This document shows, one piece after another, positions 7,218 through 54,438 of a DNA stretch of 55,511 nucleotides (the stretch's first letter is position 1; each line of letters begins with the position of its first letter). The stretch is from the IMG/VR virus record IMGVR_UViG_3300031673_016559, positions 1-55,511 of that record, one strand, 5' to 3'. The notes under the pieces were generated by a model. It saw only the letters and a program-made list of their open reading frames with translations. It had not been told where the DNA came from and did not search any database. This DNA comes from a virus. A program made the position numbers and the translations under genes.

Positions 7218-7218
7218 A

Positions 7219-8151: not shown

Positions 8152-8160
8152 TTCGGTGTC

Positions 8161-11139: not shown

Positions 11140-11586
11140 TTAGGGGGAAATTCCACGGAGAGAAAAGGCTGCGGAAAAACGCATCACTCGGCTGAACATC
11201 AGCCGCGTTTCGATCACGCGCGGCGGGCGTGCGGTGGCGGCTGCATGGATGATCGAGAGCGCGCCCGCATACGGGTAGTCACCCAGGAGTGCAAGATGCT
11301 GCGGGTCCTCGTCCGTTATGAGCAGCACCACATCGCCCGGCACCATCTTGTCTCGCGGGATTGGGTTCATGTATTGGGCGCACCACGCCATCATGCTTTT
11401 GCCGTCCGGCAACTGCGAGTAGGCCACCGTGTCGAAATCAGGCGCGACCAGGTGAAGTGCGCGGGCAACGCACACCAGCACGCCGGCGCAATCCAAGCCG
11501 ACGCCTGGGAGTCGCCCCATGTGCTGAAACGGGGTGCCGATGTACGTGCGCGCCACGTTCACGGCATCGACTCGGTTGGCGCTCAT
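11140..11586 (-). CDS. NlpC/P60-family tail assembly peptidase
   Basis: A 148-residue single-domain protein. The probable catalytic Cys33 lies in G-L-D-C-A-G and the probable His97 in P-Q-H-L-A-L, the usual NlpC/P60 order. Homologues (lambda gpK C-domain, gene-transfer-agent ORF14) sit at the tail tip and hydrolyse cell-wall peptides during assembly or DNA entry. The gene overlaps the DUF2163-like gene by 4 bp and abuts the hub gene, as in related tails. Confidence 0.85.
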   Translation of the reverse strand: MSANRVDAVNVARTYIGTPFQHMGRLPGVGLDCAGVLVCVARALHLVAPDFDTVAYSQLPDGKSMMAWCAQYMNPIPRDKMVPGDVVLLITDEDPQHLALLGDYPYAGALSIIHAAATARPPRVIETRLMFSRVMRFSAAFSLRGISP

Positions 11587-12437
11587 GCGACCACCGCGAT
11601 GCTTGGCGGCGCAGTCAGGTCATTCATGCCTTTGCGGTGCGGCTCGCCGACGAAGTTCACGACGTTGCTGAATTTTGTGTGGCAATCCTCGTCAACCCGC
11701 TTCATGCAGCCGGCGACCGCGCGATAGGTGTCGCCCGGCAGAACAGGCAATATAAGCGGGATAGAGAGGGTGAACACTCCACCAGCGAAGGATTTGATTT
11801 TGGCGGACAGGCCGCTGTTATTGCCGCTGGTGAAAGTAACCTGCCCCTCGTTGAACCATTGCGGGGCCTCGGTTCTCGCGGTGTCGGTGAACACCTGCTC
11901 GTTGGTAACGCCCGTGATCGCGCTGGTGTAGGTGAACGCCGTGAGGTCTTTTCTGCAACGAACATCGCCGAGCCGGGCGCGGCAGGTTTTGCTGCTCGCG
12001 TCGCCCACCGACTGCTGCAGGTATTGGCGAAAGTCGCGCAGCTCCGCGGTGACGGAATTGCGCAGCATCGTGAATTCGCCCAAGGTGCCCGAGAGCAGCG
12101 TGTCGATGCCGTCGGTGATGCTCGCCCAGTTATAGCGGAAAATAGTGAAGGCGGCGTTGCGCCACTTGCCGCCGAGAATGTCAGCGGTGGTGAATACCGA
12201 TCCGTCGTGCAAGGTGGTGAGCTGCAAATTTCCCACCGCTCCGTTGGCCGCGATCACGATGTCGCTCGCGGCGAGGCCCGGCTTCGCGAGATAGGTCACT
12301 CCACCCACCAGGTCGTCGATGTCGTGCGTCGTGAACGCGAACACCGCGCCGTCCGCGCGGGTGATTTTCAGGGCGGTTGCGAGGGTGGTGTCGCGCGTCG
12401 CGATGTGCGCTGCGAGCGCGCTTGGCAGCGTTTTCAT
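11583..12437 (-). CDS. DUF2163/BR0599-like minor tail protein (gpL / GTA ORF13-like)
   Basis: A 284-residue protein. It has an N-terminal DUF2163-like region (F-T-T-H-D, D-D-L) and a C-terminal BR0599-like region (C-M-K-R-V-D-E-D-C-H-T-K-F). Four cysteines occur as C152-x8-C161 and C244-x7-C252. In lambda gpL, four cysteines with nearly the same spacing bind a [4Fe-4S] cluster, so a cluster is likely here. It is a tail-tip component between the DUF2460 protein and the NlpC/P60 peptidase, with 4-bp overlaps on both sides. Confidence 0.85.
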   Translation of the reverse strand: MKTLPSALAAHIATRDTTLATALKITRADGAVFAFTTHDIDDLVGGVTYLAKPGLAASDIVIAANGAVGNLQLTTLHDGSVFTTADILGGKWRNAAFTIFRYNWASITDGIDTLLSGTLGEFTMLRNSVTAELRDFRQYLQQSVGDASSKTCRARLGDVRCRKDLTAFTYTSAITGVTNEQVFTDTARTEAPQWFNEGQVTFTSGNNSGLSAKIKSFAGGVFTLSIPLILPVLPGDTYRAVAGCMKRVDEDCHTKFSNVVNFVGEPHRKGMNDLTAPPSIAVVA

Positions 12438-13009
12438 AGCCGCAGCTCGGTGATGGCGATGGAAGTCCAGTCATACAGCTCGAAGCTGATCCATTGCGGC
12501 ATCATCTGGTCGATGTCGAAGCGAACGGGAAAATCGAATTCACCCGTCCAGCTCGTCGGAGCGCCGCCAGACCCCGTCACAATGCCGGTGGTGTAGTCCA
12601 GCGAGTAAGTCCCGCCGCCGGCCAGGACCACGGTGCCGACAACCGGCTTGGAGATTTTGCGAAAGGTGTTGAGCGCGGCGAAGGTGTATTTTTTGTAGAG
12701 CTGCCAGTGGGTGCCGTCGATGGCAACAATCGAGCCCTCGCCCTCGCCAGCCTGGTAGTCGTTGAAATTTTTGAACCGGAATCCGTTGTGCATCCCGGCG
12801 ACGCCGTGAAAGAAAGCCAGCAGGTCGTCCAGCTCGGCCTGGTTGCGCACGCCCTGAATCACGTTGCCCTGGTAGAGCGGCATCGACCAGTTCTGGTTAT
12901 TGACTTCGAACCCGCCAGCGTTGCGCGCGATGCTGGTGGAATAACCCGGGCCGAATTGCGACCCGGCTCCGATGGACTCCGGGAAGCGCGGCGTTTCGAT
13001 AAAGGCCAT
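12434..13009 (-). CDS. DUF2460-family distal tail protein (GTA ORF12-like)
   Basis: A 191-residue protein with the family's hallmarks: F-P-E-x-I-G-A-G-S-Q-F-G-P near the start, then G-M-H-N-G-F-R-F-K-N-F-N-D-Y, and a C-terminal S-I-A-I-T-E-L-R-L strand. DUF2460 proteins form the distal tail or hub ring between the tape measure tube and the tip in gene-transfer-agent-type tails. The ATG overlaps the tape measure stop codon (TGATG). Confidence 0.9.
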   Translation of the reverse strand: MAFIETPRFPESIGAGSQFGPGYSTSIARNAGGFEVNNQNWSMPLYQGNVIQGVRNQAELDDLLAFFHGVAGMHNGFRFKNFNDYQAGEGEGSIVAIDGTHWQLYKKYTFAALNTFRKISKPVVGTVVLAGGGTYSLDYTTGIVTGSGGAPTSWTGEFDFPVRFDIDQMMPQWISFELYDWTSIAITELRL

Positions 13010-15597
13010 CAGTTGTTCCTCGCCATTGCGCGCTGCACGCCGAGGCCCGCAGCCGCCGCGATCTGCGCCTGCGAGCGCGTATCGGTCTGGCCGCTAATGG
13101 TGAACACGTTGGTCACGGTCACCGCGCCGCCCATGGAGCTGTTGGGAATGATGTTGCCGGAGGTCGAGGGCACGAACATTTCCGGCCCCTGCTCGCCGAC
13201 CACGTAGGGACTGCCCGCGGACACCGGGCCGCCGCCCGCGGCAAAGGCCAGCTCCGCAACCGGCGCCGCCGCCTGGGTGCTCGGCCCGAGAATGTTGCCG
13301 AGCCAGGACATTGCGCCGCCGAGGTTGCTTGCCATCGGGCCGGTAATTTGCTGGCGGATCTGGATGCGAACGATGTCCGCGATCAACGAGTCGGCGAACG
13401 TCTTGAAATTGAGCTTGCCGGTCGTGACGAAGGTGACGAGCGCATCCTCCATGTTCTTGAAGGCGTCGGTGAAAGCGGTTTTCGCCATTGCCGCGGCGTT
13501 GGTGGCGGAGTCGAGGTAGTCGCCGATGGCGTTTTTTGCGCCGTATTCGAACGTCCTATTCACCGTCGAGGCCGACGTCGCTATGTCGTCGAGGCTTTGC
13601 CTGAGAGCTACCGCGCGCTGCCTCTGAGCGTCGGTCATTGCCGACTTGTCGATCAAGTTCAGCGCGTCCAGTTCAACCTGCATCTGCGGCAGGAAACTCT
13701 GGCGCAGCAGCAATATCCGCTGCCTGCTCTCGTACTCGCTGATGAGTCCCTGGTTCGCTTGGAGGGTGATCGCCTTTTCCTGATTGCCGAGATCGGTCTG
13801 CGACCGGCCGAACGCGGTGGTGATATCCGTGAGCTTCGCGGTGATGAGGCCGGTTCGGATGAGGTCGTTGGCGATCGCCAGGCCCGCCGCGTCGGCGTTG
13901 ACCGTCATGCTTTTGAGCTTGTCGGTCCATTGCTTGTCCAGGCCGATCACGTAGGCTTCGGTCGCCCTGCCTTGTAAAGTGAGGAGCTGCTCCTCATCCG
14001 ATTTGCGTTCGAGCGTGTATTTGCGCCAGGCGTCGGTGTAATCCAGAACGGTCTTGGCGCCGATGCGGCCCTCATCCTCTTGCGCCTTGTTCAGCTCACC
14101 CTGCAGGGTGACGAGCTTCGCCATCGCGGTGTATCTGGCCGCGGGGTTGGCGGCTGAGCTGACCGCTTTTTGCTCCGCGGTTATCGAGGCTTGGATGCCG
14201 GCGATTTTCAGGTCGGCGTCCTTGCGTTCCAGCACTTCGCGCTGCGCGTAAAAGTCCTGATAGCTGATCAAGTTGTGCGCTAGCGCCTGGTCGAGCAAAA
14301 GCGTCTGGCTCGCGATGGCCTCCGACTGCACCTTGGCAAGCGCGTCCTGCTGCGCCTTGACCAATGCCGCTAGAGCGGAGGCGTTCTTTCCCGCCTGCGC
14401 GCCACCGGTTGCGTCGAAGTTCAGTTGCGGCTTGACGATGGGCTGGCCGAATTGGTCGACCGGGCCTGACCACGGGCCGGTCGCGTTCCCCTGCTCTGCC
14501 TTGCGCGCGGCGATCTGCTTTTGCATCGCGAGCTCAAACGAGTTGCCCTGCGCGTTCCAGAGCTTGTCGTACTTGACCCCGGCGTCCTCGAGGATCGCGT
14601 TGCGCTCGGCGAGCGCCGTCTTGAATTCTGTGAGCGGGTTCCGGCCGCCGATCACCGCACCGGCGAGCGCGCCCGGATTTGATAACTGTGCCGCTTTAGA
14701 GGCGACGGTGATGTCCGCCCAAACCACCTTGAAGCTGCTGGTGACTGCGGAGATCAGGTTCGGGATGGTCTTGAGCACGTCGATCAGGCGCGCGAGGCCC
14801 ATCATACCGGCGTCTGCCCAATCCTCGATTGAGTGGTCGGCGGCGAGGCCCTTCACGTGATTGCCGAGCGAGTCGGTTTCCGTCGCCCCGGCGATCAGCG
14901 CCTTCACGAACGACTCCATGCTCGGGAGCAGCGCCGTGACCACGGTGTTCCACAGGATCGTTTCCTGCTGTCCGAGCAAAGCCACTTGCAGCGCGTATTC
15001 CTTGGCCGCTGCTGCCTGTGCCGCGGTTGCCGTCGCTTGGACAGGGCCGAGCTCCACCATCGCGTTCATGGCCGGGAGCTGTTCGGCGCCCGCCTTGCCC
15101 ATCAACGCGACCGCGATGGCGGTCTTGCCAGCGCCATCGGCATAGCCGTATAGCTTCTGCGCGATCTCGCCGTAGAGCACCGCTGGTTCTTTGAGGTTGC
15201 CCTCCGCATCCTTGGCCGAGAGTCCGAGTTTTAAGAGTGCCTGCGACGCGGGTGCCGCGACGTTGCCCGCAGCGGCTTCCGCCTTGCTCAATTTCACGAG
15301 CGCGCCGGTTACGCTGTCGAGATTGCCGCCGGATACTCCGGCGTAGAATTGCAACTGCGAAATCGCCTCGACGCTGGCGCCGGTTTTCTCCGAGGACATC
15401 CGCAGCTTGTCCATGCCGTCGGCGACCGAGTTGATCTTGTCGAGCAGCATCGTCGCGGAAAAACCGACACCGATCGCGCCGAGCATGGACTCGATGCTTT
15501 TCACGGTGTCGCCGACGATGCCCTTCGCCTTGCCCATATCGGTCGTGAGCTGCGCCATGTTGGCGAGCATCTGGATTTCGAGCGTGCCAGCGATCAT
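13009..15597 (-). CDS. Phage tail tape measure protein
   Basis: An 862-residue protein with an AAGGGG site and a 4-bp overlap with the chaperone extension. Residues 1-250 resemble prophage tail-length domains (G-V-S-G-G-N-L-D, alternating helices). A long helical region of Ala/Gln/Glu coiled coils follows (about 380-680). The last 150 residues match the lambda-type tape measure C-terminus (G-E-Q-G-P-E-M-F-V-P). Length sets the tail: 862 residues at about 1.5 angstrom per residue would give roughly 120-130 nm. It is encoded immediately after the frameshifted tail assembly chaperone, the usual order. Confidence 0.93.
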   Translation of the reverse strand: MIAGTLEIQMLANMAQLTTDMGKAKGIVGDTVKSIESMLGAIGVGFSATMLLDKINSVADGMDKLRMSSEKTGASVEAISQLQFYAGVSGGNLDSVTGALVKLSKAEAAAGNVAAPASQALLKLGLSAKDAEGNLKEPAVLYGEIAQKLYGYADGAGKTAIAVALMGKAGAEQLPAMNAMVELGPVQATATAAQAAAAKEYALQVALLGQQETILWNTVVTALLPSMESFVKALIAGATETDSLGNHVKGLAADHSIEDWADAGMMGLARLIDVLKTIPNLISAVTSSFKVVWADITVASKAAQLSNPGALAGAVIGGRNPLTEFKTALAERNAILEDAGVKYDKLWNAQGNSFELAMQKQIAARKAEQGNATGPWSGPVDQFGQPIVKPQLNFDATGGAQAGKNASALAALVKAQQDALAKVQSEAIASQTLLLDQALAHNLISYQDFYAQREVLERKDADLKIAGIQASITAEQKAVSSAANPAARYTAMAKLVTLQGELNKAQEDEGRIGAKTVLDYTDAWRKYTLERKSDEEQLLTLQGRATEAYVIGLDKQWTDKLKSMTVNADAAGLAIANDLIRTGLITAKLTDITTAFGRSQTDLGNQEKAITLQANQGLISEYESRQRILLLRQSFLPQMQVELDALNLIDKSAMTDAQRQRAVALRQSLDDIATSASTVNRTFEYGAKNAIGDYLDSATNAAAMAKTAFTDAFKNMEDALVTFVTTGKLNFKTFADSLIADIVRIQIRQQITGPMASNLGGAMSWLGNILGPSTQAAAPVAELAFAAGGGPVSAGSPYVVGEQGPEMFVPSTSGNIIPNSSMGGAVTVTNVFTISGQTDTRSQAQIAAAAGLGVQRAMARNN

Positions 15598-43098: not shown

Positions 43099-44040
43099 AT
43101 GACGAAACTCACGCCACAAGAAGCGCAGGCCGTACAAGCGAATTTATTCCCTGAGGCTTGGAAGGTAGTCCGCGAGATAGAGGACTTTCCTTGGCATCGG
43201 GATCGTTCTGGCGCTGTGACCGCAGCCGTGCCGGAGTCATCACAGGCACTTGCGATCGATGTGTTCGGCACCCTGAAGACCTTGGCCGCGCCATCTCGCC
43301 TAGTTGATGCGTGGATATCACAGTGGGGCCTCACATTCTCGGGTCCGTGGCGATTCTGCCTTGAATACCTCGTGCCGAGGGCAATTCTAGGAGAACCACA
43401 CTCGACACAAGTCGATGCGGTAGCCCAAAGCGATAAGAATCTCATTTTCTTCGAATGTAAGTTCACAGAGCCAGATGGGGGAGCGTGCTCTCAGCCGCAA
43501 CCATTGGGGGGGAAATCGCCCAACCGTGGAAAGGTGCAGTGCACAGGTGACTACACATTGCAGACCAATCCTGTCAATGGGAGGACCTCCCGTTGCGCCC
43601 TCAACGGCAAAGGGGTCCGCTACTGGGAAATTGTGCCTCGCGTTCTTTCAATAGCTAACGACGTAGATCATCGCCCCTGCCCGTTCAAAGGTGGCTGGTA
43701 TCAGTGGATGCGAAATCTGGTTGCCTGCAGCGCTGTATCGGAATCATCTAATAAGCGGGGAGCGTTCGTTGTTTTGTATGCGGACGGCCCCTTCCCCATG
43801 GCAGAGAAGATTCAGTCGACGGAATGGAAGGAAATTCGCAATCTCACTTCTGGAAGGGAAGTGCCGCTTATCGACGTGTCCTATCAGAAGCTACTAACGA
43901 TTGGAGCAGCAGCCGCAGATCCGGTCGATTTAAGTGTGATGCAACGGCTCGTCGCCTGGGTGAATCAGAAGGTGGCGACCGTAGCCGCCCTACCGAACAG
44001 CCGCATCTTCGAAGCGGCCCACGATCGCGAGCTGATGTAA
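43099..44040 (+). CDS. PD-(D/E)XK nuclease-like protein
   Basis: A 313-residue protein. E89 in F-C-L-E-Y, D106 in T-Q-V-D-A, and E119-C-K121 in F-F-E-C-K-F fit the E, D and E-x-K active site of restriction-like nucleases. Four cysteines in or after the core (120, 130, 148, 166) could bind metal. The region G-D-Y-T-L-Q-T-N and G-V-R-Y-W-E-I follows. Base use is less GC-rich than in the phage genes, hinting at separate acquisition. No methyltransferase partner is adjacent. It may be a solitary restriction-type or defence nuclease. Confidence 0.7.
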   Translation: MTKLTPQEAQAVQANLFPEAWKVVREIEDFPWHRDRSGAVTAAVPESSQALAIDVFGTLKTLAAPSRLVDAWISQWGLTFSGPWRFCLEYLVPRAILGEPHSTQVDAVAQSDKNLIFFECKFTEPDGGACSQPQPLGGKSPNRGKVQCTGDYTLQTNPVNGRTSRCALNGKGVRYWEIVPRVLSIANDVDHRPCPFKGGWYQWMRNLVACSAVSESSNKRGAFVVLYADGPFPMAEKIQSTEWKEIRNLTSGREVPLIDVSYQKLLTIGAAAADPVDLSVMQRLVAWVNQKVATVAALPNSRIFEAAHDRELM

Positions 44041-44668: not shown

Positions 44669-44875
44669 ATGAATACGATCAATTCCCGCCCTCCCGAAAC
44701 AATGTCCCCGTCGCAGCGATTGACCGAAATCGCTGAACTCCTCGCGCGTGGCGTCACACGCTGTGCAGCACGCTATCACGAGCAATGTGCAGCGCGCCAG
44801 TTTTGCCTTGACTCTTCTGGCACCCAGAGCGTTCATGCGAACCCGTCGCAACTAATGAAGGGAGTCGTCGCATGA
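44669..44875 (+). CDS. Small protein of the recombinase cassette
   Basis: A 68-residue protein from ATG 44669. The pattern S-P-S-Q-R-L-T-E-I-A-E-L-L-A-R-G-V-T-R is the recurrent helical protein found directly upstream of DUF2924 and large serine recombinase genes. Its stop overlaps the DUF2924 start by 4 bp. Function unknown. Confidence 0.7.
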   Translation: MNTINSRPPETMSPSQRLTEIAELLARGVTRCAARYHEQCAARQFCLDSSGTQSVHANPSQLMKGVVA

Positions 44876-45318
44876 ACCATCAACCCTCCGTCGCCGCGCT
44901 GCTTGCGCGCCTGCCCGACATGGAGATGGACGAGCTTTGGGCACTGTGGGACAAGCATTTTCATGCGCGGCCAAAGAACCATCATCGTGGATTCGTCCAA
45001 TCGCGCCTGGCCTACAAGATTCAGGAGCTGGCATACGGCGGTCTCAACCCGACCACCCGCCGGCAGTTGGAACGTATCGGCGAATCGGGTGACCTCCCCC
45101 GCAGGTTTAAGAAGGGTGGACAGCGGCTCGTGGCCCCGGGGACGGTCCTCGTGCGCGAATACGACGGCCGCGAGGTGCGCGTGACGGTGACGCCGGATGG
45201 CCGTTTCGAGTTCGACGGCACAATCTTCCGCAGCCTTACCGCCATTACCCGACACCTGACCGGCGCCAATTGGTCGGGCCCCGCGTTTTTCGGCCTGGTC
45301 GGAAGGCCGCAGCCATGA
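44872..45318 (+). CDS. DUF2924-family protein
   Basis: A 148-residue protein. The pattern L-W-A-L-W-D-K-H-F, then R-L-A-Y-K-I-Q-E-L-A-Y-G-G-L, then L-V-R-E-Y-D-G-R-E-V-R-V-T-V, and S-L-T-A-I-T-R-H-L-T-G is the DUF2924 signature. It is always seen next to serine recombinases of this type and probably assists them in DNA binding or directionality. It overlaps both neighbours by 4 bp. Confidence 0.92.
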   Translation: MNHQPSVAALLARLPDMEMDELWALWDKHFHARPKNHHRGFVQSRLAYKIQELAYGGLNPTTRRQLERIGESGDLPRRFKKGGQRLVAPGTVLVREYDGREVRVTVTPDGRFEFDGTIFRSLTAITRHLTGANWSGPAFFGLVGRPQP

Positions 45319-46691
45319 GCGAAGTCATTACCCGAAAGCGCTGCGCGGTCTATGCGCGTGTCTCCACCGACGAACGGCTCAACCAGGAATTCAATTCGAT
45401 CGATGCACAGCGCGAAGCTGGCCGGGCCTTTATCGCGTCGCAACGCCATGAGGGTTGGCTGCCAGTAGCCGACGACTACGATGACGGGGGCTTTTCGGGT
45501 GGATCAATGGAACGCCCGGCGCTTAAACAGTTGCTGCGTGACATCGAGGATGGGCGCATTGATGTCGTCGTAGTCTACAAGATCGACCGGCTAACGAGGA
45601 GCCTCGCCGACTTCGCCAAAATGGTCGAGGTCTTTGATCAGCGCGGCGTTTCCTTCGTATCGGTCACGCAGCAGTTCAATACCACGACCTCCATGGGTCG
45701 GCTCACGCTCAACATCCTGCTCTCGTTTGCGCAGTTCGAGCGCGAGGTCACAGGTGAGCGCATCCGGGATAAATTCGCAGCCAGCAAGGCCAAAGGCATG
45801 TGGATGGGCGGCATCCCGGCGTTGGGGTACGACGTCGCCCAGCGCCGGTTGGTGACCAATCCGACAGAGGCTAAGCTCGTGCACCACATCTATACCCGGT
45901 TTAGCGAGTTGGGCGATTACTCCCGGCTTGTACGCGAGTTGGCCCTCGACGGCTACCACACCAAGGCATGGGTCACGCAAGACGGACGCTCGCGTGTTGG
46001 CAAGAAATTCTGCAAGCAGTTTCTCTACAAATTGCTGAGGAACCGAACCTACCTGGGTGAGATTACCCACAAGGGCAAGTCCTACCCTGGACAACATGAC
46101 CCGATCATTTCGGCGGATCTCTGGAGCAAGGTCCAGGCCGTATTTGCGACCAATCCCGGCGCCCGGGGGCAGGACACGAAATTCGACCTTCAGGGAAAAA
46201 CCCCGGCGCTGTTGCGCGGGCTGCTGGTGGGCGAGTTCGGCGAGCGCATGCTGCCGACCTATACCAACAAGAAAGGCGGGCGCCGCTACACGTATTACGT
46301 CTCTGCCCTCGAGAAGCAATACGGTGTCGGAACTTCCCATACGCCACGCCTGCCGGCCGCGGAGATTGACAAACTAGTGTTGGATCAGGTCCGGGCAACG
46401 CTCGACGCCCCCGAAATCGTGGTCACGGTACTCAAGGAAGTACGCAAGACGCACCCGCGGCTCGACGAGGCGCGTGTTTGCATCGCCCTAAAGCGTCTCG
46501 GCGCGGTTTGGGACCAACTCTATCCGATCGAGCAGAACCGCCTGTTACGACTGCTGATTGAGCGCGTGCAACTGAAGACAGGTGGTATCGAGATTGCCTG
46601 GCGCGAGTTCGGGATCTATGACGTCGCGGCCGAAATCGCCGAGGCACCCCTCGTCAAGGAGGCCCGCGAAAAAGAGGAGGTTGCAGCATGA
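45315..46691 (+). CDS. Large serine recombinase (probable integrase)
   Basis: A 458-residue protein from ATG 45315. The resolvase domain has Y-A-R-V-S17-T-D with the nucleophilic Ser and the D-R-L-T-R motif. A recombinase domain follows from about residue 165 (G-I-P-A-L-G-Y-D-V). Where the zinc ribbon usually sits (about 295-345), the Cys residues are absent (L-L-V-G-E-F-G-E-R-M), a feature of the DUF2924-linked subfamily. It is the only integrase seen in the window and probably integrates the prophage or its host element. Confidence 0.92.
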   Translation: MSEVITRKRCAVYARVSTDERLNQEFNSIDAQREAGRAFIASQRHEGWLPVADDYDDGGFSGGSMERPALKQLLRDIEDGRIDVVVVYKIDRLTRSLADFAKMVEVFDQRGVSFVSVTQQFNTTTSMGRLTLNILLSFAQFEREVTGERIRDKFAASKAKGMWMGGIPALGYDVAQRRLVTNPTEAKLVHHIYTRFSELGDYSRLVRELALDGYHTKAWVTQDGRSRVGKKFCKQFLYKLLRNRTYLGEITHKGKSYPGQHDPIISADLWSKVQAVFATNPGARGQDTKFDLQGKTPALLRGLLVGEFGERMLPTYTNKKGGRRYTYYVSALEKQYGVGTSHTPRLPAAEIDKLVLDQVRATLDAPEIVVTVLKEVRKTHPRLDEARVCIALKRLGAVWDQLYPIEQNRLLRLLIERVQLKTGGIEIAWREFGIYDVAAEIAEAPLVKEAREKEEVAA

Positions 46692-47137
46692 CGGCAAATC
46701 GTAGGATCGAAATCGTGATGCTCGGCGAGCCGGAAAAGCGACGGCAAGGCGATCGGCTTGTTACCTTCGTGCCGATGCGCGTTAAGAGGCGCGGGTTCAA
46801 AAAGCTGCTGATCGGCCCCAAAGCTGCGGGGGCAGTGGCGCAGGCTGAGGCCCAGTCGGATTTCCCGCTGGTTAAGGCCGTGGCCAAGGCGTTTCATTGG
46901 CAAAAACTACTGGATGAGGGCCGCATTGCGGATAGCACGGAACTGGCAAAGCGGGAAAAGCTCGACAAGACCTTCGTCAACGAGACCCTGCGGTTTGCGT
47001 TGCTGGCCCCGGAGATCGTCGAGGCGATCCTTGTCGGTCGCCAACCCCGAACCCTGACCCTTCAGGATCTGCGGCGCAGAGTCCCGGACGACTGGGCCGA
47101 ACAACTGCAGGCCTTCGGGTTCGGCTCCGATGTCTGA
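46688..47137 (+). CDS. Recombinase-associated HTH protein
   Basis: A 149-residue protein that overlaps the recombinase stop by 4 bp. The helix K-A-F-H-W-Q-K-L-L, then S-T-E-L-A-K-R-E-K-L-D-K-T-F-V-N-E-T-L-R-F looks like a ParB/KorB-type HTH. A-P-E-I-V-E-A-I-L-V-G-R-Q-P follows. It recurs downstream of this recombinase class and could be its directionality factor. Its end marks the likely right edge of the phage or element genes. Confidence 0.8.
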   Translation: MTANRRIEIVMLGEPEKRRQGDRLVTFVPMRVKRRGFKKLLIGPKAAGAVAQAEAQSDFPLVKAVAKAFHWQKLLDEGRIADSTELAKREKLDKTFVNETLRFALLAPEIVEAILVGRQPRTLTLQDLRRRVPDDWAEQLQAFGFGSDV

Positions 47138-47215: not shown

Positions 47216-47251
47216 TTAATTCAATGCAGAATAAGATGTATACTTAATATG
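47216..47251 (+). promoter_or_regulatory. Promoter giving a leaderless methyltransferase transcript
   Basis: TATACT at 47239-47244 ends five bases before the ATG at 47249. A weak -35 (TTAATT, 47216-47221) is 17 bp upstream. Transcription would begin at or next to the ATG, and no Shine-Dalgarno sequence is visible. The mRNA is therefore probably leaderless. Confidence 0.5.
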
Positions 47252-48370
47252 AATATTCAGCACTCACTCAATACGGTGTGCCCGTATTACACGATGTTCC
47301 CGCTCGCGTTTCCTGAGCGGGTATTGCGGGCTGCGGGCGCTAGGGAATTGGTGGCGGATCCGTACTGCGGCCGGGGCACTACGATCTATGCCGCGCGGTT
47401 GCGCGGGCTGCGAAGCTACGGGATTGACACCTCTCCAGTTGCAGTCGCGGTTTCGCGCGCGAAGGTCACTTCAACGTCACTCAGTGCCGTGATGCGAGCC
47501 TATGACCGGTTGCTCAATGCGGTGCCCTGGGCTGAAACACCGACCGGGCGATTCTGGCGGCTCGCGTACCACGCAGAGACACTGTCTGTGCTTTGCCGCC
47601 TACGCGTCGCGCTCCGTCGTTCTTTGAAAAGGAACGCCGCAGCCGAGTCGGACGCAGTGACAATGCTGCGCGCTGTGGCGCTTGGGGCCCTGCACGGGCC
47701 ACTCAACGCAGTAGGGTTGCCAGGAAGTTACTTTGGCAACCAGATGCCTCGCACCTTTGCGCCCAAACCTGACTACGCTGTGCGCTTCTGGACCGAGCGA
47801 AGCTTGAGACCGCAAGTGGCCAGCGTGCGGGACATCATCCGCAAACGCGCCAAGAAGATATTGGATGGGTTCGTGCCAAGCAGCGGCATGGGGTGGATCG
47901 TCGCGGGCGACAGCCGTAAGCAGGCTGCGTGGGAGAGATTGCCTGGAAGAATCAGTCGGGTAATCACGTCGCCGCCCTACTACGGTATGAACACCTACGA
48001 GGAGGACCAATGGCTCCGGATCTGGTTCCTCGGAGGTCCCAGCATCGTGCAATACGGAAACAAGAACCAGCTGTCACACCACAGCCCCGAGGAGTTCGCG
48101 AAGTCAATGGCCAAGGTATGGGACCAAATCGGCGATCACGCAAGGCCGGAACTTGCCATGGCGGTGCGCTTCGGAGGGATCGGCTCGCACAAGAGCGACT
48201 ACCAGCAGATCATGGTCGAATCACTGGAATATTCCAAACACCGCTGGCGAATGGTTTCGACGCGCAATGCTGGTGATGCCACGAATGGCCGGCGTCAAGC
48301 CGAAACCATGGGGAAACGCGCCAAGTCGAGCAGCATCGAGGAGCGCGACTTCTACGTTCGCTTGTCGTAG
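47249..48370 (+). CDS. DNA amino-methyltransferase (accessory island)
   Basis: A 373-residue protein from ATG 47249. The SAM-binding motif V-A-D37-P-Y-C-G-R-G-T-T is N-terminal. The catalytic T-S-P-P-Y-Y-G-M (about 240) comes about 200 residues later, leaving room for a target-recognition region, unlike the beta-class enzyme at 28,756. The pattern W-L-R-I-W-F-L-G-G-P follows. S-P-P-Y favours N4-cytosine or N6-adenine methylation. Its last 19 bp overlap, tail to tail, the nuclease-helicase gene. The pair may be a modification and attack unit. Confidence 0.85.
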   Translation: MNIQHSLNTVCPYYTMFPLAFPERVLRAAGARELVADPYCGRGTTIYAARLRGLRSYGIDTSPVAVAVSRAKVTSTSLSAVMRAYDRLLNAVPWAETPTGRFWRLAYHAETLSVLCRLRVALRRSLKRNAAAESDAVTMLRAVALGALHGPLNAVGLPGSYFGNQMPRTFAPKPDYAVRFWTERSLRPQVASVRDIIRKRAKKILDGFVPSSGMGWIVAGDSRKQAAWERLPGRISRVITSPPYYGMNTYEEDQWLRIWFLGGPSIVQYGNKNQLSHHSPEEFAKSMAKVWDQIGDHARPELAMAVRFGGIGSHKSDYQQIMVESLEYSKHRWRMVSTRNAGDATNGRRQAETMGKRAKSSSIEERDFYVRLS

Positions 48371-51300
48371 AGCGCGTATCGGATCTCGACTTCGCGTTCT
48401 TCCCCGCAGTAGTCCAGCTTGATGCGAGGATCACGGTCATGGGCAAGCTGAAATGCAAACCCTTTGATTGCCCGCGAGTCCATGACTACGTCCTTGTCGT
48501 CCGGCAGATGAAACAACAAATCGCGAGAGATAAACAGCACCGCCTTGGCGCGGGCGCGGGATATTGCGACATTGATTCGTTGCCGCTGGAACAGGAAGCT
48601 CTCCTCGCTGCGGATCAAATCCGGGTCGCCGATGCCGAACGACACCAAAATGAGGTCACGTTCACCACCTTGGAACCGTTCGACGGTATCCACTGCGTCG
48701 TCGATCATGTCCGCCGGTACGGATTCGGCGGCAAGCGCAACCCGGAGCAGCTCAACCACAGCTGAACGCTGCGCGCGGTGCGGGGTGACGATCCCGACTG
48801 AATCTGCCCAAAAGGTGGACTCGCTGAACGCTCCGCCTGCGCGGAGCTTTTCTGCTGCGCGGTAGGCCAGCACGGTCCCGGCGACCAGCGTTGCTTCGAA
48901 AACGTTGGCCTGGCCGGACGTGCCATCGTCATAGGTAACCGCAACGCACGGAAGCGCCGGGTCCAGGATGCGGTCATAGACCGCCCACCACGGAATGCCG
49001 CTCGGCCATGCGACCGGCGCCGCGCCGTGCGCAACGTAGGTAAGGGCCCGGCTCGGCACTTCCGAAGTGAATTCCTGCTTGTAGCCAATCATCCGCGCGT
49101 ACCGCACTATGGGCTCGCATGAGCGGTAGTTGTATTTCAGAAAGCACTCCTCAGCCTTCACGGTCGCGAAACGCGTAGTCAGGTAGGTATGTAAGCTACC
49201 GACCATATGCTCGGCACCCAGCGGGGGCTCGACGGACTGAATCGGCGGCATCTGCATGGGATCCCCAAACAGGCTGAGTCTCCCGCCGGTCGTCAGCAGC
49301 CCCAGGGTCGTGAGCGAATCGGCAACCGACACCTGGGAACTTTCGTCGATGAAAATTCTGTCGAACAGCCCAACCACCGCCGCGATGCCGTCATCGTCCT
49401 TATTGGCGCGACCGCCTTTCCCGATCCAATAGGACTGCTTCGTCACGCTGAAGACTAGTTCAACCCGATTTTCGTCCCCCGCCAGCCGTTCACGTAGCGC
49501 GTCCAAATTGCTGTCGGCGCTTTGAACCCCGTTCAGATAGTAGTCCTTCCCGAGGTAGAGCTCGGTGTTCAATCCGCAGTACTGCGGGCCAGCGTTCAGG
49601 AGTGCTTCCCAGGCATCGCGACTGCTCGCGCTGGCGACAAACGACGCCGTGACGTGCTTTTGCAGGTAATCGCGCACTTCAGTCGACAGGTACGGCAGGA
49701 TGCGCGCCAGTCGCCCGGCAACTTCGATCACGGCTCGGTAGGTCGGTCCAGTGACGTAGATCCGCTGGCGAGCGTGCCTCGACTTTAGACGCAGCAGGAT
49801 TTCCAAGATAATAGTCGCCGACAGCGTCTGCGTTTTCCCCGTGCCAGGGCCTCCCCATACCGGCATCAACTGCCGTGCAATTACCTTGTGGATAGCCTCG
49901 CGCTGCGACGAGTTGATCTGAATTTTGTCTTCGGCCGCCTCCGACAGCGCGAGCACCTTGTTGTCAAGGAAATCGTCAAAGTGGGTGAGGTCAGTGTCGG
50001 TCGGTGCCGACGCGAGTTTGTCAGCGCCCCACAGCACAGTCGCGGCCGGCTTCTCGGGATCGCGACCGGGCTTACGCTTCACCTCGACCAGGGCTGTGTT
50101 AGTTTCCGGCGCCGCGACAGCGATGGGCGGATTACCGATAAGCTCCGCGACATCCTTCAACGATTCGAAATCTGAATACGAGCCGCTTTCCATCAATATC
50201 ATTGGCGCATTCAGGTCGAGGACCCCGGATTGCACCAGCACTGTGAACTTGTCGAAGAACGGCTTGAAGTCAAACGCCACTAGCGCTCGCAAGTTCTCGC
50301 GGTCGAAGTGGACCAGCCTCGCGCCAAGCAGCTTTGCCACCGGTCTGTAGTTGTCGTTCGGACCCCACCCTACGTAAATTGCCGGGTCGGGTGTATTGGT
50401 GCCGAGGACACGGCACAGGCCGGCCACGTTCATCAGTCCCGCGCCCAGCGGATCCTCTGGCATTAGCGCCAAGAATCCCGCGTCGTTTCGGAACTTGACG
50501 TGTCTCGACGTATTGCGCACGCGAAACAGAAGATGGTGGTCGCTCAGCGCAGCAGGGACATGCTCAAGCCCCTGGCTGCGCCAGTCGTCAACGACGGCCT
50601 TGCGATTGGCACCGAGGATCAACCCTTCGACCCTGAGCGCCTGGTACCGGGCTTCGAGTTCATGAGGATCACTTGTATATGCGCGAGTTCGTTCGAGCTC
50701 GGCTACGCCGTCGCTCACCTTCTGGTGGGTGAGCCAAAGCATGGAATCGGCGGCCACTTTGTTGAACCGCGTGGGCGGCAAATCCTTGATCCGCGGGGCG
50801 TCCCCCTTAAGCTGCTTGCTGTGGTCACGCTGAACGCTGAACGTGATTTGCCGCATTCCGTGTATGATCGTCCGCAGCATTCCGCGGTATTGATCGATGC
50901 ACTGACTGATCGACATCGGCGGATTCTTCGGGGGCATGCTCTGCGAAATTTCGAGGCTCCGCTCCTTGGGGATCACGCCAGCAACACGATCCCACATGTA
51001 GGGAGTCGAGCCATCCTTGAAGTCGGCAATGTGGTTCGCGACGCTCAAAATGTCGTCGTTGATGATTGTCGGCAGCGCGACCAGCCGGGTCACCACGTCA
51101 TGCAAGTGGCACACGGCTGGCGTCGTAGCGATACTGTCGGATTGTTCCATCTCGCGCGGCGGAAACAACCATAGCAACGCGTTGGCGACGTCTTTGCTGT
51201 GCGTTATCTGGTGCAGGTGCCGCCCGATAGCTTCACGGAATGCCTCATCCTGCCGGGCGTCCCAGAACACCACCTGAATGCGGGCGTTCGCTTTGCTGTA

Positions 51301-52875
51301 TGCGGCCCAGGCCACCTTGTCGGGCACTTCATCCGGCGCAGCGCTCGCGCTTAGAACGTAATCGATGAATTGCGACAGGAACCGAAGGCAATCCAACAGG
51401 TGCTTGGCTTCGCACTCCGCCGTGGCTTCTTCGATGACCCACATCATCTGCTGCTTGCGGTCGATTCTCGGCGTAGCAGGAACGCGCGCAGGTTGACCTT
51501 CCTTGTTTAGACCGTTTATCCATTCTGTCGGCGACTTGTAGTCGACGCCCATTGCGATCGAGGTCAGTAGGCCAGTCGCCGCATCGAAAAAACAAGCCAC
51601 AGTTACAAGCAGATCCGCATAGCGTGCCATTTCCCCGGATATAGAGAGTGGATGGTCGGCTTTCAGGACGTCGACTACGGCGCCTGCTTTCCGCGGGAGG
51701 CGGAGAGATTCAATGCGGAGGCCGTTGTGCTGGACGAACACAGAATCGCTATTGGATCGCCCGCGCAAGTCCGCCAGTCCATTGACCTTGCCGCGCTGAA
51801 GAGTGCGGAGCATACCCCGCGTCATATTCGGCAGATGATTGAGGCGATTATTCCGCCTCGCGTCTTCGTGGCAGTAGTCGTCAAGTGTCGGTGCTGAGGC
51901 TTTCCTGTGCAGCTTGACCCACTTGGACTGCACCTCAGGGATACCACGCTTCGACCAGCCGGGGTATCCCAGGTAATCGCAGAACGCGCATGTCGGGGTG
52001 ACATGCCATTCCAGGCTGCGCCAGATGGACATGCTGGCGATCACCCGCTTGAGATCGTCGCGAAAGAACCGCACAACTGGCGGCGCGTAGAGGTCTGCTT
52101 CCGCGGCATCGATTTGTTTTTCAAACCATGCGGTGCGCTCCTCCAGGGAGGCCGAGGGTGCAGGCATCCCGGTCATCCTATCGCTGTGCCGAACGAGGAC
52201 GCCGGGTGTGGAGCTAACGTAATAGCGATCGGCAAGCGCAATCTCAGGATGCTCCAGCCAGGCGGCAAGAACCATGGAATACAGGCAAACCTCGCCGGCA
52301 TACGCGATGTTGAGTTGCTCGGCAAATTTCAGGTCGGCAACACGCAGTGCAATGCGGGTGTCGCTCGGTTCTATCCTTCTCACCGAGCCGTCAGGTCTGA
52401 TTTCACTTCCGGTGATGGCAGTGTTGTCGGCGGTTCTGCGCATTGCAACGACGAGGTCCGGGCGCAGATCAGTCATGTCCGGATATCCGGCGACATCGAC
52501 GCCGAGCGCCGTCAGGAGGATCGCGCGGTAGCGTTCCTCAACCAGGGTTGGCTCATTGAAAATGCGAGGCAGCGAGAGGCCTCCGCTTATGAGCTCCTCG
52601 AGCTTTCCTTTGAATACTATGTCGCGCGGGAGCTTGCCCGAGGCAGCTTTCGGGACGTCGACGAATTCGCCGGGGTAGAGAGTGGAGAGCTCGGCGAGAA
52701 ACTCCTTCTCGAACTCCATGCCCCGTGCCCGAAATCCAGCCAAGCCGGGGCGCGCAGGGAGCGCCAGCAATGTATCGGAGGAACCGTTGGTTTCGCTGAT
52801 CGAACAGGCAAGCATGCGGTCGCAGCGAGTACGCAAATACTGCGACAGCGCTGCCTTGGGCAGGCGCGTGGTCAT
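48352..52875 (-). CDS. Cas4-like nuclease fused to SF1 (Dna2/UPF1-type) helicase
   Basis: A 1,507-residue protein from ATG 52875 with AGGAG 7 bases upstream. The N-terminal nuclease has D140 in R-P-D-L-V-V and D181-L-K183. E195 stands where a Gln-containing motif is usual. Cysteines C18, C296, C299 and C335 could hold a [4Fe-4S] cluster. About 550 residues without a recognised domain follow. The helicase has G-G-P-G-T-G-K-T (near 1005), F-I-D-E-S-S-Q (near 1173), G-D-P-M-Q-M-P-P and S-R-A-R-A-K (near 1440). Architecture resembles Dna2 or TM0106-type nuclease-helicases. Role unproven; defence is the likeliest given the neighbours. Confidence 0.88.
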   Translation of the reverse strand: MTTRLPKAALSQYLRTRCDRMLACSISETNGSSDTLLALPARPGLAGFRARGMEFEKEFLAELSTLYPGEFVDVPKAASGKLPRDIVFKGKLEELISGGLSLPRIFNEPTLVEERYRAILLTALGVDVAGYPDMTDLRPDLVVAMRRTADNTAITGSEIRPDGSVRRIEPSDTRIALRVADLKFAEQLNIAYAGEVCLYSMVLAAWLEHPEIALADRYYVSSTPGVLVRHSDRMTGMPAPSASLEERTAWFEKQIDAAEADLYAPPVVRFFRDDLKRVIASMSIWRSLEWHVTPTCAFCDYLGYPGWSKRGIPEVQSKWVKLHRKASAPTLDDYCHEDARRNNRLNHLPNMTRGMLRTLQRGKVNGLADLRGRSNSDSVFVQHNGLRIESLRLPRKAGAVVDVLKADHPLSISGEMARYADLLVTVACFFDAATGLLTSIAMGVDYKSPTEWINGLNKEGQPARVPATPRIDRKQQMMWVIEEATAECEAKHLLDCLRFLSQFIDYVLSASAAPDEVPDKVAWAAYSKANARIQVVFWDARQDEAFREAIGRHLHQITHSKDVANALLWLFPPREMEQSDSIATTPAVCHLHDVVTRLVALPTIINDDILSVANHIADFKDGSTPYMWDRVAGVIPKERSLEISQSMPPKNPPMSISQCIDQYRGMLRTIIHGMRQITFSVQRDHSKQLKGDAPRIKDLPPTRFNKVAADSMLWLTHQKVSDGVAELERTRAYTSDPHELEARYQALRVEGLILGANRKAVVDDWRSQGLEHVPAALSDHHLLFRVRNTSRHVKFRNDAGFLALMPEDPLGAGLMNVAGLCRVLGTNTPDPAIYVGWGPNDNYRPVAKLLGARLVHFDRENLRALVAFDFKPFFDKFTVLVQSGVLDLNAPMILMESGSYSDFESLKDVAELIGNPPIAVAAPETNTALVEVKRKPGRDPEKPAATVLWGADKLASAPTDTDLTHFDDFLDNKVLALSEAAEDKIQINSSQREAIHKVIARQLMPVWGGPGTGKTQTLSATIILEILLRLKSRHARQRIYVTGPTYRAVIEVAGRLARILPYLSTEVRDYLQKHVTASFVASASSRDAWEALLNAGPQYCGLNTELYLGKDYYLNGVQSADSNLDALRERLAGDENRVELVFSVTKQSYWIGKGGRANKDDDGIAAVVGLFDRIFIDESSQVSVADSLTTLGLLTTGGRLSLFGDPMQMPPIQSVEPPLGAEHMVGSLHTYLTTRFATVKAEECFLKYNYRSCEPIVRYARMIGYKQEFTSEVPSRALTYVAHGAAPVAWPSGIPWWAVYDRILDPALPCVAVTYDDGTSGQANVFEATLVAGTVLAYRAAEKLRAGGAFSESTFWADSVGIVTPHRAQRSAVVELLRVALAAESVPADMIDDAVDTVERFQGGERDLILVSFGIGDPDLIRSEESFLFQRQRINVAISRARAKAVLFISRDLLFHLPDDKDVVMDSRAIKGFAFQLAHDRDPRIKLDYCGEEREVEIRYALYDKRT

Positions 52876-53193
52876 TAACAACTCCTCGTTCCGAGGTTAA
52901 ACACGCGAGCGTTCCGCCCACGTGTGTACCGGGAAATCCCAGTAATCGTAACTTTACTCCAACCAAAACTTTTCGGGAAGACCCGTGTTTTCCGTCGTAG
53001 CAGTCCTCGACCGGCAGGTCCTGACCGACACCTGCTTGCAGAAGTCGCAACCTACTGATCTTCTGAAAAACGGCAGCTTTTCAAGACTCCGAAAGCGTAC
53101 TCCATACCCACTGCGGCCGCACTACCTGGTGGAGATCGAGCGACCGCTCCCGGCAACAGAGGTCATTGCTCGTTAGCGTTCGACCTTATCGAA
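52876..53193. other. 318-bp intergenic region, no gene supported
   Basis: This lies between the start of the nuclease-helicase gene and the end of the HEPN-type gene. It holds the AGGAG site at 52882-52890 (minus strand). A 63-codon plus-strand frame at 52985 has no ribosome site or recognisable sequence. No good sigma-70 promoter, tRNA or repeat was seen. Confidence 0.6.
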
Positions 53194-54438
53194 TCATGGC
53201 TTAACGTCGCCGATGATCTCTCGAAAGAAATCCTGCCATTTCCCAATCTCGCCGCGTTTCAATGCGTCCAGTATCCGCACCCTGTCTGTCGAAAGCACGG
53301 CGGCTATCACCTGTTCACCGTGTATTTCTGCTCTCGCACATATGCGGCGGCACATCTCCTGATGATCGCCATTTTCGTAGCTAAGGCGTACGAGCCGCTG
53401 GTGCTGCTCCAGTGTCATGACCATAAGCGTGGGCCTCGCGCTTTGAGGAGGAGCGTCAGAGGTCATTTCTATTTTCATGCCTGAGAAGCTCAGATCAAAC
53501 TCGCCATCTGCCTCCACTGGAACAACGGTTTGAATGTGTGCAACGCCCGATAGGGTTCGATGGACATAGGTCGATGGATTGCCGAAGATGACTTTGTCGC
53601 TAAATGTTTCTGGCGGGAATTGGTTGACTAGCGCCTTAAATACAATTTTTCCTAAGACGTCAACGATTTCCTCTCGCGGTTCCGGAAGGTTCTTCTCAAT
53701 CTCCCTCAACGTTCCTCCATGCATGAGCGCGTTCCTTGCCTTTTCCAACATCTCCAAGGTTGCGTCATCGCAGTCCTTGTCTACAGCCTTCATCATCGCG
53801 CGAATGGCTTGTTTTTCGTACGGCTTATGGACCGGATGCGTCTTGCAAGTCTCACAGTACAGGGGCGACCTGCAGTGAGGGCACGCGTCCGGCACTTTCT
53901 CCGATGATTTCTGAGAAATAGCAAGAAGCTCCAGAGCAAACCAGAAGTACTGAAACTGGTCGTCCGGAATCGCAGAGCTAACCCCGATTCGATACCACCG
54001 CATCGCTCGGCGCATTTCAGGCGGCATATCGAATGTCAGCAAGCGGTCTATCGATTTTGTGATTCGCTCATCGAGAAAAGGGGTCGGGTCTTCATGCCCT
54101 ATTGTGTCTCCCCAAATTCGGCAAGAGCGCATCTGCACGCCAGGCGTGCAGTCAACAATTTGCCTAATCCGATGCCGCACAAAGCTGGACCCAGTTGTGA
54201 GCGCAAGCATGTTCAGGCAATCAGCCAGCTTTTCCTCGGCTACGTCCGTAGCCTCATCGAGATTTGGCGCATCAAAGGTGAGGAGCAAGGACAGGAGAAA
54301 GGGCGTCAAAAAGTCCTTGCGCTCTATGTTGCGTATACGCGCCCGAAACAATCCTTTCGGATGTTGAAATTTCAGCCATCGGGCATCTTCGAAAACGGAC
54401 AACTCCGACGAAATCTCAAAGTTGGCTACGCATTGCAT
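53194..54438 (-). CDS. HEPN-type protein with zinc ribbon (putative RNase)
   Basis: A 414-residue protein from ATG 54438 with an AAGGGGG site. A helical region holds F-W-F-A-L-E-L-L-A-I (about 164-175), a zinc ribbon C186-x2-C189...C195-x2-C198, and R235-N-A-L-M-H240, the R-x4-H motif typical of HEPN ribonucleases. The C-terminal part (about 290-414) is beta-rich. Composition is clearly more AT-rich than in the phage genes, pointing to recent transfer. HEPN proteins often cut RNA in abortive-infection systems. No classic antitoxin partner is adjacent, so this remains a candidate. Confidence 0.65.
   Translation of the reverse strand: MQCVANFEISSELSVFEDARWLKFQHPKGLFRARIRNIERKDFLTPFLLSLLLTFDAPNLDEATDVAEEKLADCLNMLALTTGSSFVRHRIRQIVDCTPGVQMRSCRIWGDTIGHEDPTPFLDERITKSIDRLLTFDMPPEMRRAMRWYRIGVSSAIPDDQFQYFWFALELLAISQKSSEKVPDACPHCRSPLYCETCKTHPVHKPYEKQAIRAMMKAVDKDCDDATLEMLEKARNALMHGGTLREIEKNLPEPREEIVDVLGKIVFKALVNQFPPETFSDKVIFGNPSTYVHRTLSGVAHIQTVVPVEADGEFDLSFSGMKIEMTSDAPPQSARPTLMVMTLEQHQRLVRLSYENGDHQEMCRRICARAEIHGEQVIAAVLSTDRVRILDALKRGEIGKWQDFFREIIGDVKP

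What the first reader, a model, noticed from the sequence alone, without database searches (positions are those of the whole stretch)
47249..52875. Methyltransferase convergent and overlapping with a giant Cas4-like nuclease-helicase: candidate defence unit
The sequence shows a DNA methyltransferase and a 1,507-residue protein combining a PD-(D/E)XK nuclease with four Fe-S-type cysteines, about 550 unassigned residues, and an SF1 helicase. Their stop codons overlap by 19 bp tail to tail. Pairing a modification enzyme with a processive nuclease-helicase is the logic of several anti-phage systems, but this domain order and convergent layout does not match restriction types I-III, BREX, DISARM or Mokosh as I know them. 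Antisense overlap would also couple their expression.
Basis: partly seen in the sequence, partly recalled or inferred. Interest (0 to 1): 0.75.

Follow-up and report, generated by a model that had tools for sequence, protein, structure and literature searches.

The report
Methylase paired with DNA2-like nuclease-helicase
A prophage carries, next to its integrase, a DNA methylase gene and a giant DNA-unwinding nuclease that always travel together across distant bacteria, most likely a restriction-type immune system built on a DNA2-like motor instead of the usual motors.

Summary
In detail: an intact 373-aa DNA methyltransferase (47249-48370, +) and an intact 1,507/1,509-aa protein (48352-52881, -) end tail to tail with a 19-bp overlap. 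The giant protein is a bacterial DNA2-like ("Bad"-type) enzyme: iron-staple nuclease, central domain, SF1B helicase. Bad from Geobacillus was characterised in 2020 (PMC7430649); its authors noticed a neighbouring methyltransferase and proposed a novel restriction class. This finding extends that idea. In 19 loci with a readable flank the helicase has a methyltransferase beside it, 13 convergent (-19 to +20 bp); the one exception is frameshifted. 0 of 30 other SF1-helicase loci have one. The partners come from at least three methyltransferase families, and two partner exchanges are visible. Methyltransferases occur alone; intact helicases do not. In this phage family the site after integrase + orf149 carries different defence systems (Thoeris, DarT1/NADAR, Lit-like). 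Best reading: a prophage-borne restriction-modification-like system with an SF1/DNA2-type motor-nuclease. Methylation, its sequence and phage restriction are inferred, not shown. The 19-bp overlap is not conserved, so antisense coupling is unsupported. New variant of a known kind.

The parts
47249..48370 (+). DNA methyltransferase, 373 aa; motif I DPYCGRGTT (residues 37-45) about 200 residues before motif IV TSPPY (240-244)
   Evidence: AlphaFold2 pLDDT 84, pTM 0.86 with a SAM-methyltransferase fold
48352..52881 (-). DNA2/Bad-like nuclease-helicase, 1509 aa (TTG) or 1507 aa (ATG at 52875)
51847..52881 (-). Fe-S (iron-staple, Cas4/RecB-type) nuclease domain, residues 1-345; C20, C298, C301, C337; D142, D183-x-K185, E197, Y201
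   Evidence: invariant or nearly invariant in 15 homologues; hhalign to Bad nuclease Prob 98.6, E 1e-15
49942..51834 (-). central region, residues 350-980; residues about 372-675 homologous to the central domain of Bad, the rest unassigned
   Evidence: hhalign Prob 83-84, E 8e-6 to Bad and Prob 93, E 4e-7 to a second Bad-like protein; shuffled controls E 0.15-0.54; no confident Foldseek hit in PDB
48514..49929 (-). SF1B (UPF1/DNA2-like) helicase domain, residues 985-1456
   Evidence: Pfam AAA_11/AAA_12; PDB profile hits SMUBP-2, UPF1, DNA2
48352..48370 (.). 19-bp tail-to-tail overlap of the two stop regions
   Evidence: overlap length not conserved in relatives
45315..46691 (+). large serine recombinase (integrase) of the prophage; the TTG at 45270 gives 473 aa
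   Evidence: Pfam Resolvase/Recombinase; 80 phage relatives in the same gene order
46688..47137 (+). orf149, constant companion of the recombinase (78 of 80 relatives); the cargo starts after it
44872..45318 (+). DUF2924 protein preceding the recombinase (74 of 80 relatives)

Best explanation
The two genes form a compact restriction-modification-like anti-invader system carried as cargo by a temperate phage. The methyltransferase marks a sequence in resident DNA (m4C or m6A; inferred from the SPPY motif). The DNA2/Bad-like protein is the restriction effector: an SF1B motor that would translocate 5' to 3' along, unwind and cut unmarked incoming DNA with its Fe-S nuclease. Recognition probably comes from the methyltransferase or from the central domain reading its mark, because a nuclease-helicase allele only 39% identical can sit beside a methyltransferase 92% identical. 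SHOWN: intact conserved catalytic residues, near-obligate genomic pairing, purifying selection, partner exchange, location in a prophage defence-cargo site. INFERRED: methylation activity and target, physical or functional coupling, restriction of phage. The 5'-3' polarity is carried over from Bad (PMC7430649).
For: Convergent pair in Rhizobium and Bradyrhizobium plasmids, gamma MAGs and viral contigs: 19 loci with an MTase beside the helicase. Five more-diverged helicases have MTases of other families within about 0-220 bp. Control: 0 of 30 other SF1-helicase loci have both MTase motifs in their flanks, against 16-18 of 20 family loci with the same scan. The only MTase-less member, M. extorquens AM1, is frameshifted. 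Asymmetry typical of R-M: MTase relatives occur alone, intact helicases do not. Twelve convergent MTases form one clade (99/98) apart from solitary ones; L046 kept its helicase and took a solitary-type MTase in tandem; L050 kept its MTase and replaced its helicase. omega 0.05-0.16. The site after integrase + orf149 in relatives holds Thoeris, DarT1/NADAR, Lit-like or PIN-TPR genes. Bad, a homologue over all three domains, also neighbours a methyltransferase.
Against: No phenotype or methylome data. Nuclease and MTase activity rest on conserved motifs only. Some wider DNA2-like relatives have no MTase nearby (L086 Bacillus, L007 Caulobacter), so the superfamily does not need one. The window helicase is on a long branch (2.41). 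No target-recognition domain was identified in the giant protein.
Confidence: 0.62

Rival explanations
1. The nuclease-helicase is a stand-alone DNA-damage or replication-intermediate sensor and effector (Hachiman- or Mokosh-like); the methyltransferase protects host DNA or regulates, without setting a sequence-specific restriction signal.
For: All 15 members share helicase-domain similarity with Mokosh MkoA and MkoC models. Bad prefers 5'-flaps and free 5' ends (PMC7430649). MTase partners of different families are tolerated, as expected if the nuclease does not read their sequence.
Against: Does not by itself explain why every intact helicase keeps an MTase within about 220 bp while 0 of 30 other SF1-helicase loci do.
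Confidence: 0.2
2. Two independent defence or anti-restriction genes that are only co-inherited: the MTase shields phage DNA from host restriction, the helicase does something else.
For: MTases of this family occur alone in phage contigs, where protecting phage DNA is plausible; the site is a cargo hotspot.
Against: Recurrent pairing on plasmids and chromosomes at 29-48% identity, and replacement of one MTase by another (L046; other families in L009, L010, L012, L047, L048), are not expected of passengers.
Confidence: 0.1
3. Housekeeping or phage replication/recombination helicase-nuclease (AddAB/DNA2-like) with a fortuitous MTase neighbour.
For: The fold class is that of DNA2 and AddB; the phage carries its own Sak4 and primase.
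Against: Rare and patchy: 1 further hit in 397 sampled Pseudomonadota genomes apart from the centre genome; absent from near relatives of the phage, which carry other cargo there.
Confidence: 0.05

Closest known systems
Bad, bacterial DNA2-like helicase-nuclease of Geobacillus stearothermophilus (PMC7430649)
   Same: Same three-part order (Fe-S nuclease, central domain, SF1B helicase), homologous over nuclease, part of the central domain and helicase; gene beside a DNA methyltransferase. The Geobacillus-type copy found here has K815 and D150 exactly as published and a mod-like MTase 269 bp away.
   Different: Window protein about 250 aa longer, about 20% identical; fourth Fe-S cysteine lies 36 residues after the third instead of 6; different MTase family; convergent instead of co-directional; carried by a prophage. 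The paper left the physiological role open.
Type III restriction-modification (Mod + Res)
   Same: Two-gene logic: methyltransferase plus ATP-dependent nuclease-motor.
   Different: Res is SF2 with a C-terminal nuclease; here SF1B with an N-terminal Fe-S nuclease; the MTase lacks Mod architecture.
Type I and Type ISP restriction enzymes
   Same: Nuclease, motor and methyltransferase functions combined.
   Different: SF2 motors; fused or complexed with HsdM/HsdS; no HsdS was found here.
Mokosh (MkoA/MkoC), Dpd (DpdJ), PLuB, CoCoNuT CnuH
   Same: Helicase-domain similarity only; UPF1-like SF1 helicases occur in other defence systems (PMC11090510).
   Different: No full-length match; their characteristic partners are absent from the window flanks.
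BREX / BREX-related / ARMADA
   Same: Modification plus helicase defence logic; two relatives lie next to BrxL and a PglZ-like gene (L011, L054).
   Different: No PglZ, BrxC, BrxL or YprA-like gene next to the window pair; in L011/L054 BREX is a neighbour in the island.

Membership tests
Bad / bacterial DNA2-like helicase-nuclease | N-terminal iron-staple nuclease with four Cys and RecB-family motifs | tested here: met
   C20, C298, C301, C337, D142, K185, E197, Y201 invariant in 15 homologues; hhalign nuclease vs Bad Prob 98.6; spacing of the fourth Cys differs
Bad / bacterial DNA2-like helicase-nuclease | Central domain absent from eukaryotic DNA2 | tested here: met
   Residues about 372-675 vs Bad central domain Prob 83-84, E 8e-6, against shuffled controls with E 0.15-0.54; second half not matched
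Bad / bacterial DNA2-like helicase-nuclease | C-terminal SF1B helicase | tested here: met
   (Prob 100, E 3e-53)
Bad / bacterial DNA2-like helicase-nuclease | Fe-S cluster, 5'-3' helicase, ssDNA endonuclease activity | not testable with these tools
   needs purified protein
Restriction-modification system (any type) | Cognate modification enzyme encoded with the restriction enzyme | tested here: met
   19 loci with an adjacent MTase; exception frameshifted
Restriction-modification system (any type) | Unmodified DNA is cut, modified DNA is spared | not testable with these tools
   no methylome or restriction data
Type III R-M | SF2 Res with C-terminal PD-(D/E)XK, and Mod | tested here: not met
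   SF1 motor and N-terminal nuclease; Type III-like Mod/Res are separate neighbours in some relatives only
Mokosh | Full-length match to an MkoA or MkoC model | tested here: not met
   only the helicase domain matches
BREX | PglZ and BrxC/PglY with PglX | tested here: not met
   no such genes in the window flanks 43-55.5 kb
DISARM / Dpd / ARMADA (YprA-like) | YprA-like SF2 helicase | tested here: not met
   the DpdJ model matches only residues 1151-1484 within the SF1 region; no other helicase in the flanks

The most novel reading that the evidence does not exclude
A distinct type of restriction-modification in which an SF1B/DNA2-type processive nuclease-helicase is the effector and the sequence-specific methyltransferase is an exchangeable module: the effector does not carry its own sequence specificity but takes it from, or reads the mark of, whichever methyltransferase is encoded beside it.
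Probability: 0.35. Interest if true: 0.85.

Novelty: new variant of a known kind. Interest (0 to 1): 0.6.

Why it matters
Known ATP-dependent restriction enzymes move with SF2 motors (established knowledge; also discussed in PMC7430649). A restriction system driven by an SF1B unwinding motor with an Fe-S nuclease would be a new enzymatic route to self/non-self discrimination, and would give bacterial DNA2-like proteins, biochemically known since 2020, a physiological role. The recurrent pairing, the partner-swapped natural alleles (L046, L050) and the co-directional versions make the open question of Bad's function directly testable with natural variants.

Tried and rejected
Single-sequence scan of viral contigs with the helicase found nothing; alignments were needed. 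A single-sequence scan with the window MTase also found none. Foldseek of the AlphaFold2 model of residues 3-983 gave no hit better than E 0.5; AddB and IGHMBP2 appear only at noise level. Foldseek of the MTase gives a generic SAM-methyltransferase fold only. RNA fold of the junction is no better than shuffles (z -1.25); no promoter or terminator signal above chance. Considered and rejected: membership in Mokosh, Dpd, PLuB, BREX, DISARM (helicase-domain similarity only); obligatory antisense coupling (overlap not conserved); truncated MTase (start and length match relatives). Considered: the Type III-like Mod/Res operon upstream of the helicase in L008, L050, L051, L056, L058, L061 as part of the system. 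It is missing in the window, L002, L003, L046 and most co-directional members, so it is treated as a frequent neighbour, possibly cooperating. Literature searches found no paper describing this pair other than the Bad paper; only open-licence papers were searchable.

Full report
OBSERVATION. The window is an IMG/VR virus record, linear, 55,511 bp. It holds a prophage: terminase, major head protein, tape measure, tail proteins, primase, Sak4, repressor and a large serine recombinase. Right of the recombinase lie an intact methyltransferase (MTase), 47249-48370 (+), and an intact 1509-aa ORF, 48352-52881 (-). Their stop codons overlap by 19 bp.

WHAT THE PROTEINS ARE. The MTase is a PF01555-related DNA methyltransferase; PADLOC's type II MTase model PDLC03325 covers residues 13-322. 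Motif I (DPYCGRGTT) precedes motif IV (TSPPY) by about 200 residues; AlphaFold2 gives a confident fold (pLDDT 84, pTM 0.86). The big protein ends in an SF1 helicase of the UPF1/DNA2 group. In 15 homologues C20, C298, C301 and C337, nuclease residues D142, K185, E197 and Y201, and the helicase motifs are invariant. No library has a full-length family for it: PADLOC and NCBIfam match only the helicase domain.

CLOSEST KNOWN PROTEIN. The literature gave Bad, the bacterial DNA2-like helicase-nuclease of Geobacillus stearothermophilus (PMC7430649): an Fe-S nuclease, an unknown central domain, an SF1B helicase, and a neighbouring DNA methyltransferase. I recovered a Geobacillus-type Bad from a Bacilli genome (L085). 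Counted from its internal methionine 15, Walker A lysine is 815 and the nuclease aspartate 150, the published mutant positions. A mod-like MTase lies 269 bp downstream in the same direction. Profile alignment with the window family runs end to end (Prob 100, E 1.4e-64). Domain by domain: nuclease Prob 98.6; central domain first half Prob 83-84 (E 8e-6; shuffled controls 0.15-0.54); helicase Prob 100. So the 'Cas4-like nuclease-helicase' is a DNA2/Bad-like protein, and about half of the 'unassigned' middle is Bad's central domain.

CO-OCCURRENCE. Homologous convergent pairs lie on plasmids of Rhizobium leguminosarum and Bradyrhizobium, in gammaproteobacterial MAGs and in several viral contigs, plus one genome found by random sampling (G127). 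Junctions are -19, -9, -4 (three times) and +11 to +20 bp. Five more diverged helicases (L009, L010, L012, L047, L048) have a co-directional MTase of another kind: about 700-aa MTases in three, 359- and 410-aa MTases in two. In all, 19 loci have an MTase directly beside the helicase. A motif scan finds an MTase within 5 kb in 16 of 20 family loci (18 with a looser motif; the rest by Pfam or by eye) and in 0 of 30 loci of other SF1 helicases. The one family member without an MTase, in Methylorubrum extorquens AM1, is frameshifted between its nuclease and helicase parts. In contrast MTases of this family do occur alone. Such asymmetry is expected of restriction-modification. The helicase searches alone recovered these loci, so the pairing is not an artefact of searching with the MTase. 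The sampled prevalence is low: one further Pseudomonadota genome in 397 besides the centre genome.

EVOLUTION. The twelve convergent MTases, including the window's, form one clade (99/98) without the solitary ones. Two exchanges are visible. L046 has a helicase 62% identical to that of L008 but an MTase of the solitary clade, and there the genes are in tandem. L050 has an MTase 92% identical to that of L056 but a helicase only 39% identical; DNA similarity of 83-90% covers the MTase, the helicase 3' end and the gene beyond, but not the helicase body, so the helicase was replaced in place. Both genes are under purifying selection where dS is not saturated (omega 0.05-0.16). The exchange of MTases suggests that a methyltransferase is needed; the exchange of helicases suggests that sequence specificity does not reside in the nuclease-helicase. 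Both are inference.

LOCATION. Eighty phage relatives of the recombinase share the order repressor, M78 protease, DUF2924, recombinase, orf149. In relatives with the window's arrangement, what follows orf149 is variable: Thoeris ThsA + ThsB (L125), DarT1 with its NADAR antitoxin (L140), a Lit-like protease (L114), a PIN-TPR protein (L119), a PADLOC candidate PDC-M48B (L112), an SDH-type protease (L118). The window pair occupies this site. Whether the site lies just inside the prophage or just across its att site in the host was not resolved. Some relatives of the pair border BREX (BrxL confirmed by Pfam; a PglZ-like neighbour assigned by eye) or Type III-like genes.

MECHANISM. Best supported: the MTase marks resident DNA and the DNA2-like motor-nuclease degrades unmarked incoming DNA. 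Bad's published activities (5'-3' motor, ssDNA endonuclease, flap and free-end preference) make unwinding coupled to cutting plausible. How the enzyme is loaded and how the mark is read is unknown; candidates are a complex with the MTase or the central domain. Rivals are a damage-sensing effector with a protective MTase, and passenger genes.

VERDICT. The claim of an unprecedented architecture needs correction: Bad and its methyltransferase neighbour were described in 2020, with the same hypothesis. What is added here is a divergent prophage- and plasmid-borne branch, a convergent layout with a different MTase family, near-obligate pairing against a control, partner exchange, and a defence-cargo location. 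Novelty: new variant of a known kind.

Noticed in passing
L125, L140, L114, L112, L119, L118, downstream of the recombinase and orf149: The site after integrase + orf149 in this phage family is a cargo hotspot: Thoeris, DarT1/NADAR, Lit-like peptidase, MBL candidate, PIN-TPR, SDH-type protease.
   Followed up: partly
window 43099-44040 (+): A second likely conflict gene between the M78 protease and DUF2924: PF22558 'REase-ARP' nuclease (40.6 bits, above cut-off).
   Followed up: no
window 53194-54438 (-): MauJ-domain protein (PF17419), 313 bp upstream of the helicase in the same direction; possibly part of the cargo.
   Followed up: no
L051, L056, L058, L061, L008, L050 upstream of the helicase: A co-directional Type III-like Mod + Res pair (Res with a TnsA-like nuclease domain in L051) recurs beside three deep helicase lineages; possible cooperation or co-transfer.
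   Followed up: partly
L050 2874-6867 compared with L056: In-place replacement of the nuclease-helicase body between a conserved MTase and a conserved downstream gene.
   Followed up: yes
L007 (Caulobacter sp. S6 plasmid) 5004-13597; similar on Methylobacterium, Azospirillum and Skermanella plasmids: A related DNA2-like system split into two proteins (762 + 2102 aa in L007), with no methyltransferase found near L007; looks like another uncharacterised relative.
   Followed up: no
L086 5421-10124 (-): A 1567-aa Bad-like protein in Bacillus with an extra N-terminal stretch of about 260 residues and no methyltransferase nearby.
   Followed up: no
L005 and L065: Distant MTases of the same family sit in another conserved set: a ParB-like gene, a 335-366-aa gene, then the MTase.
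   Followed up: no
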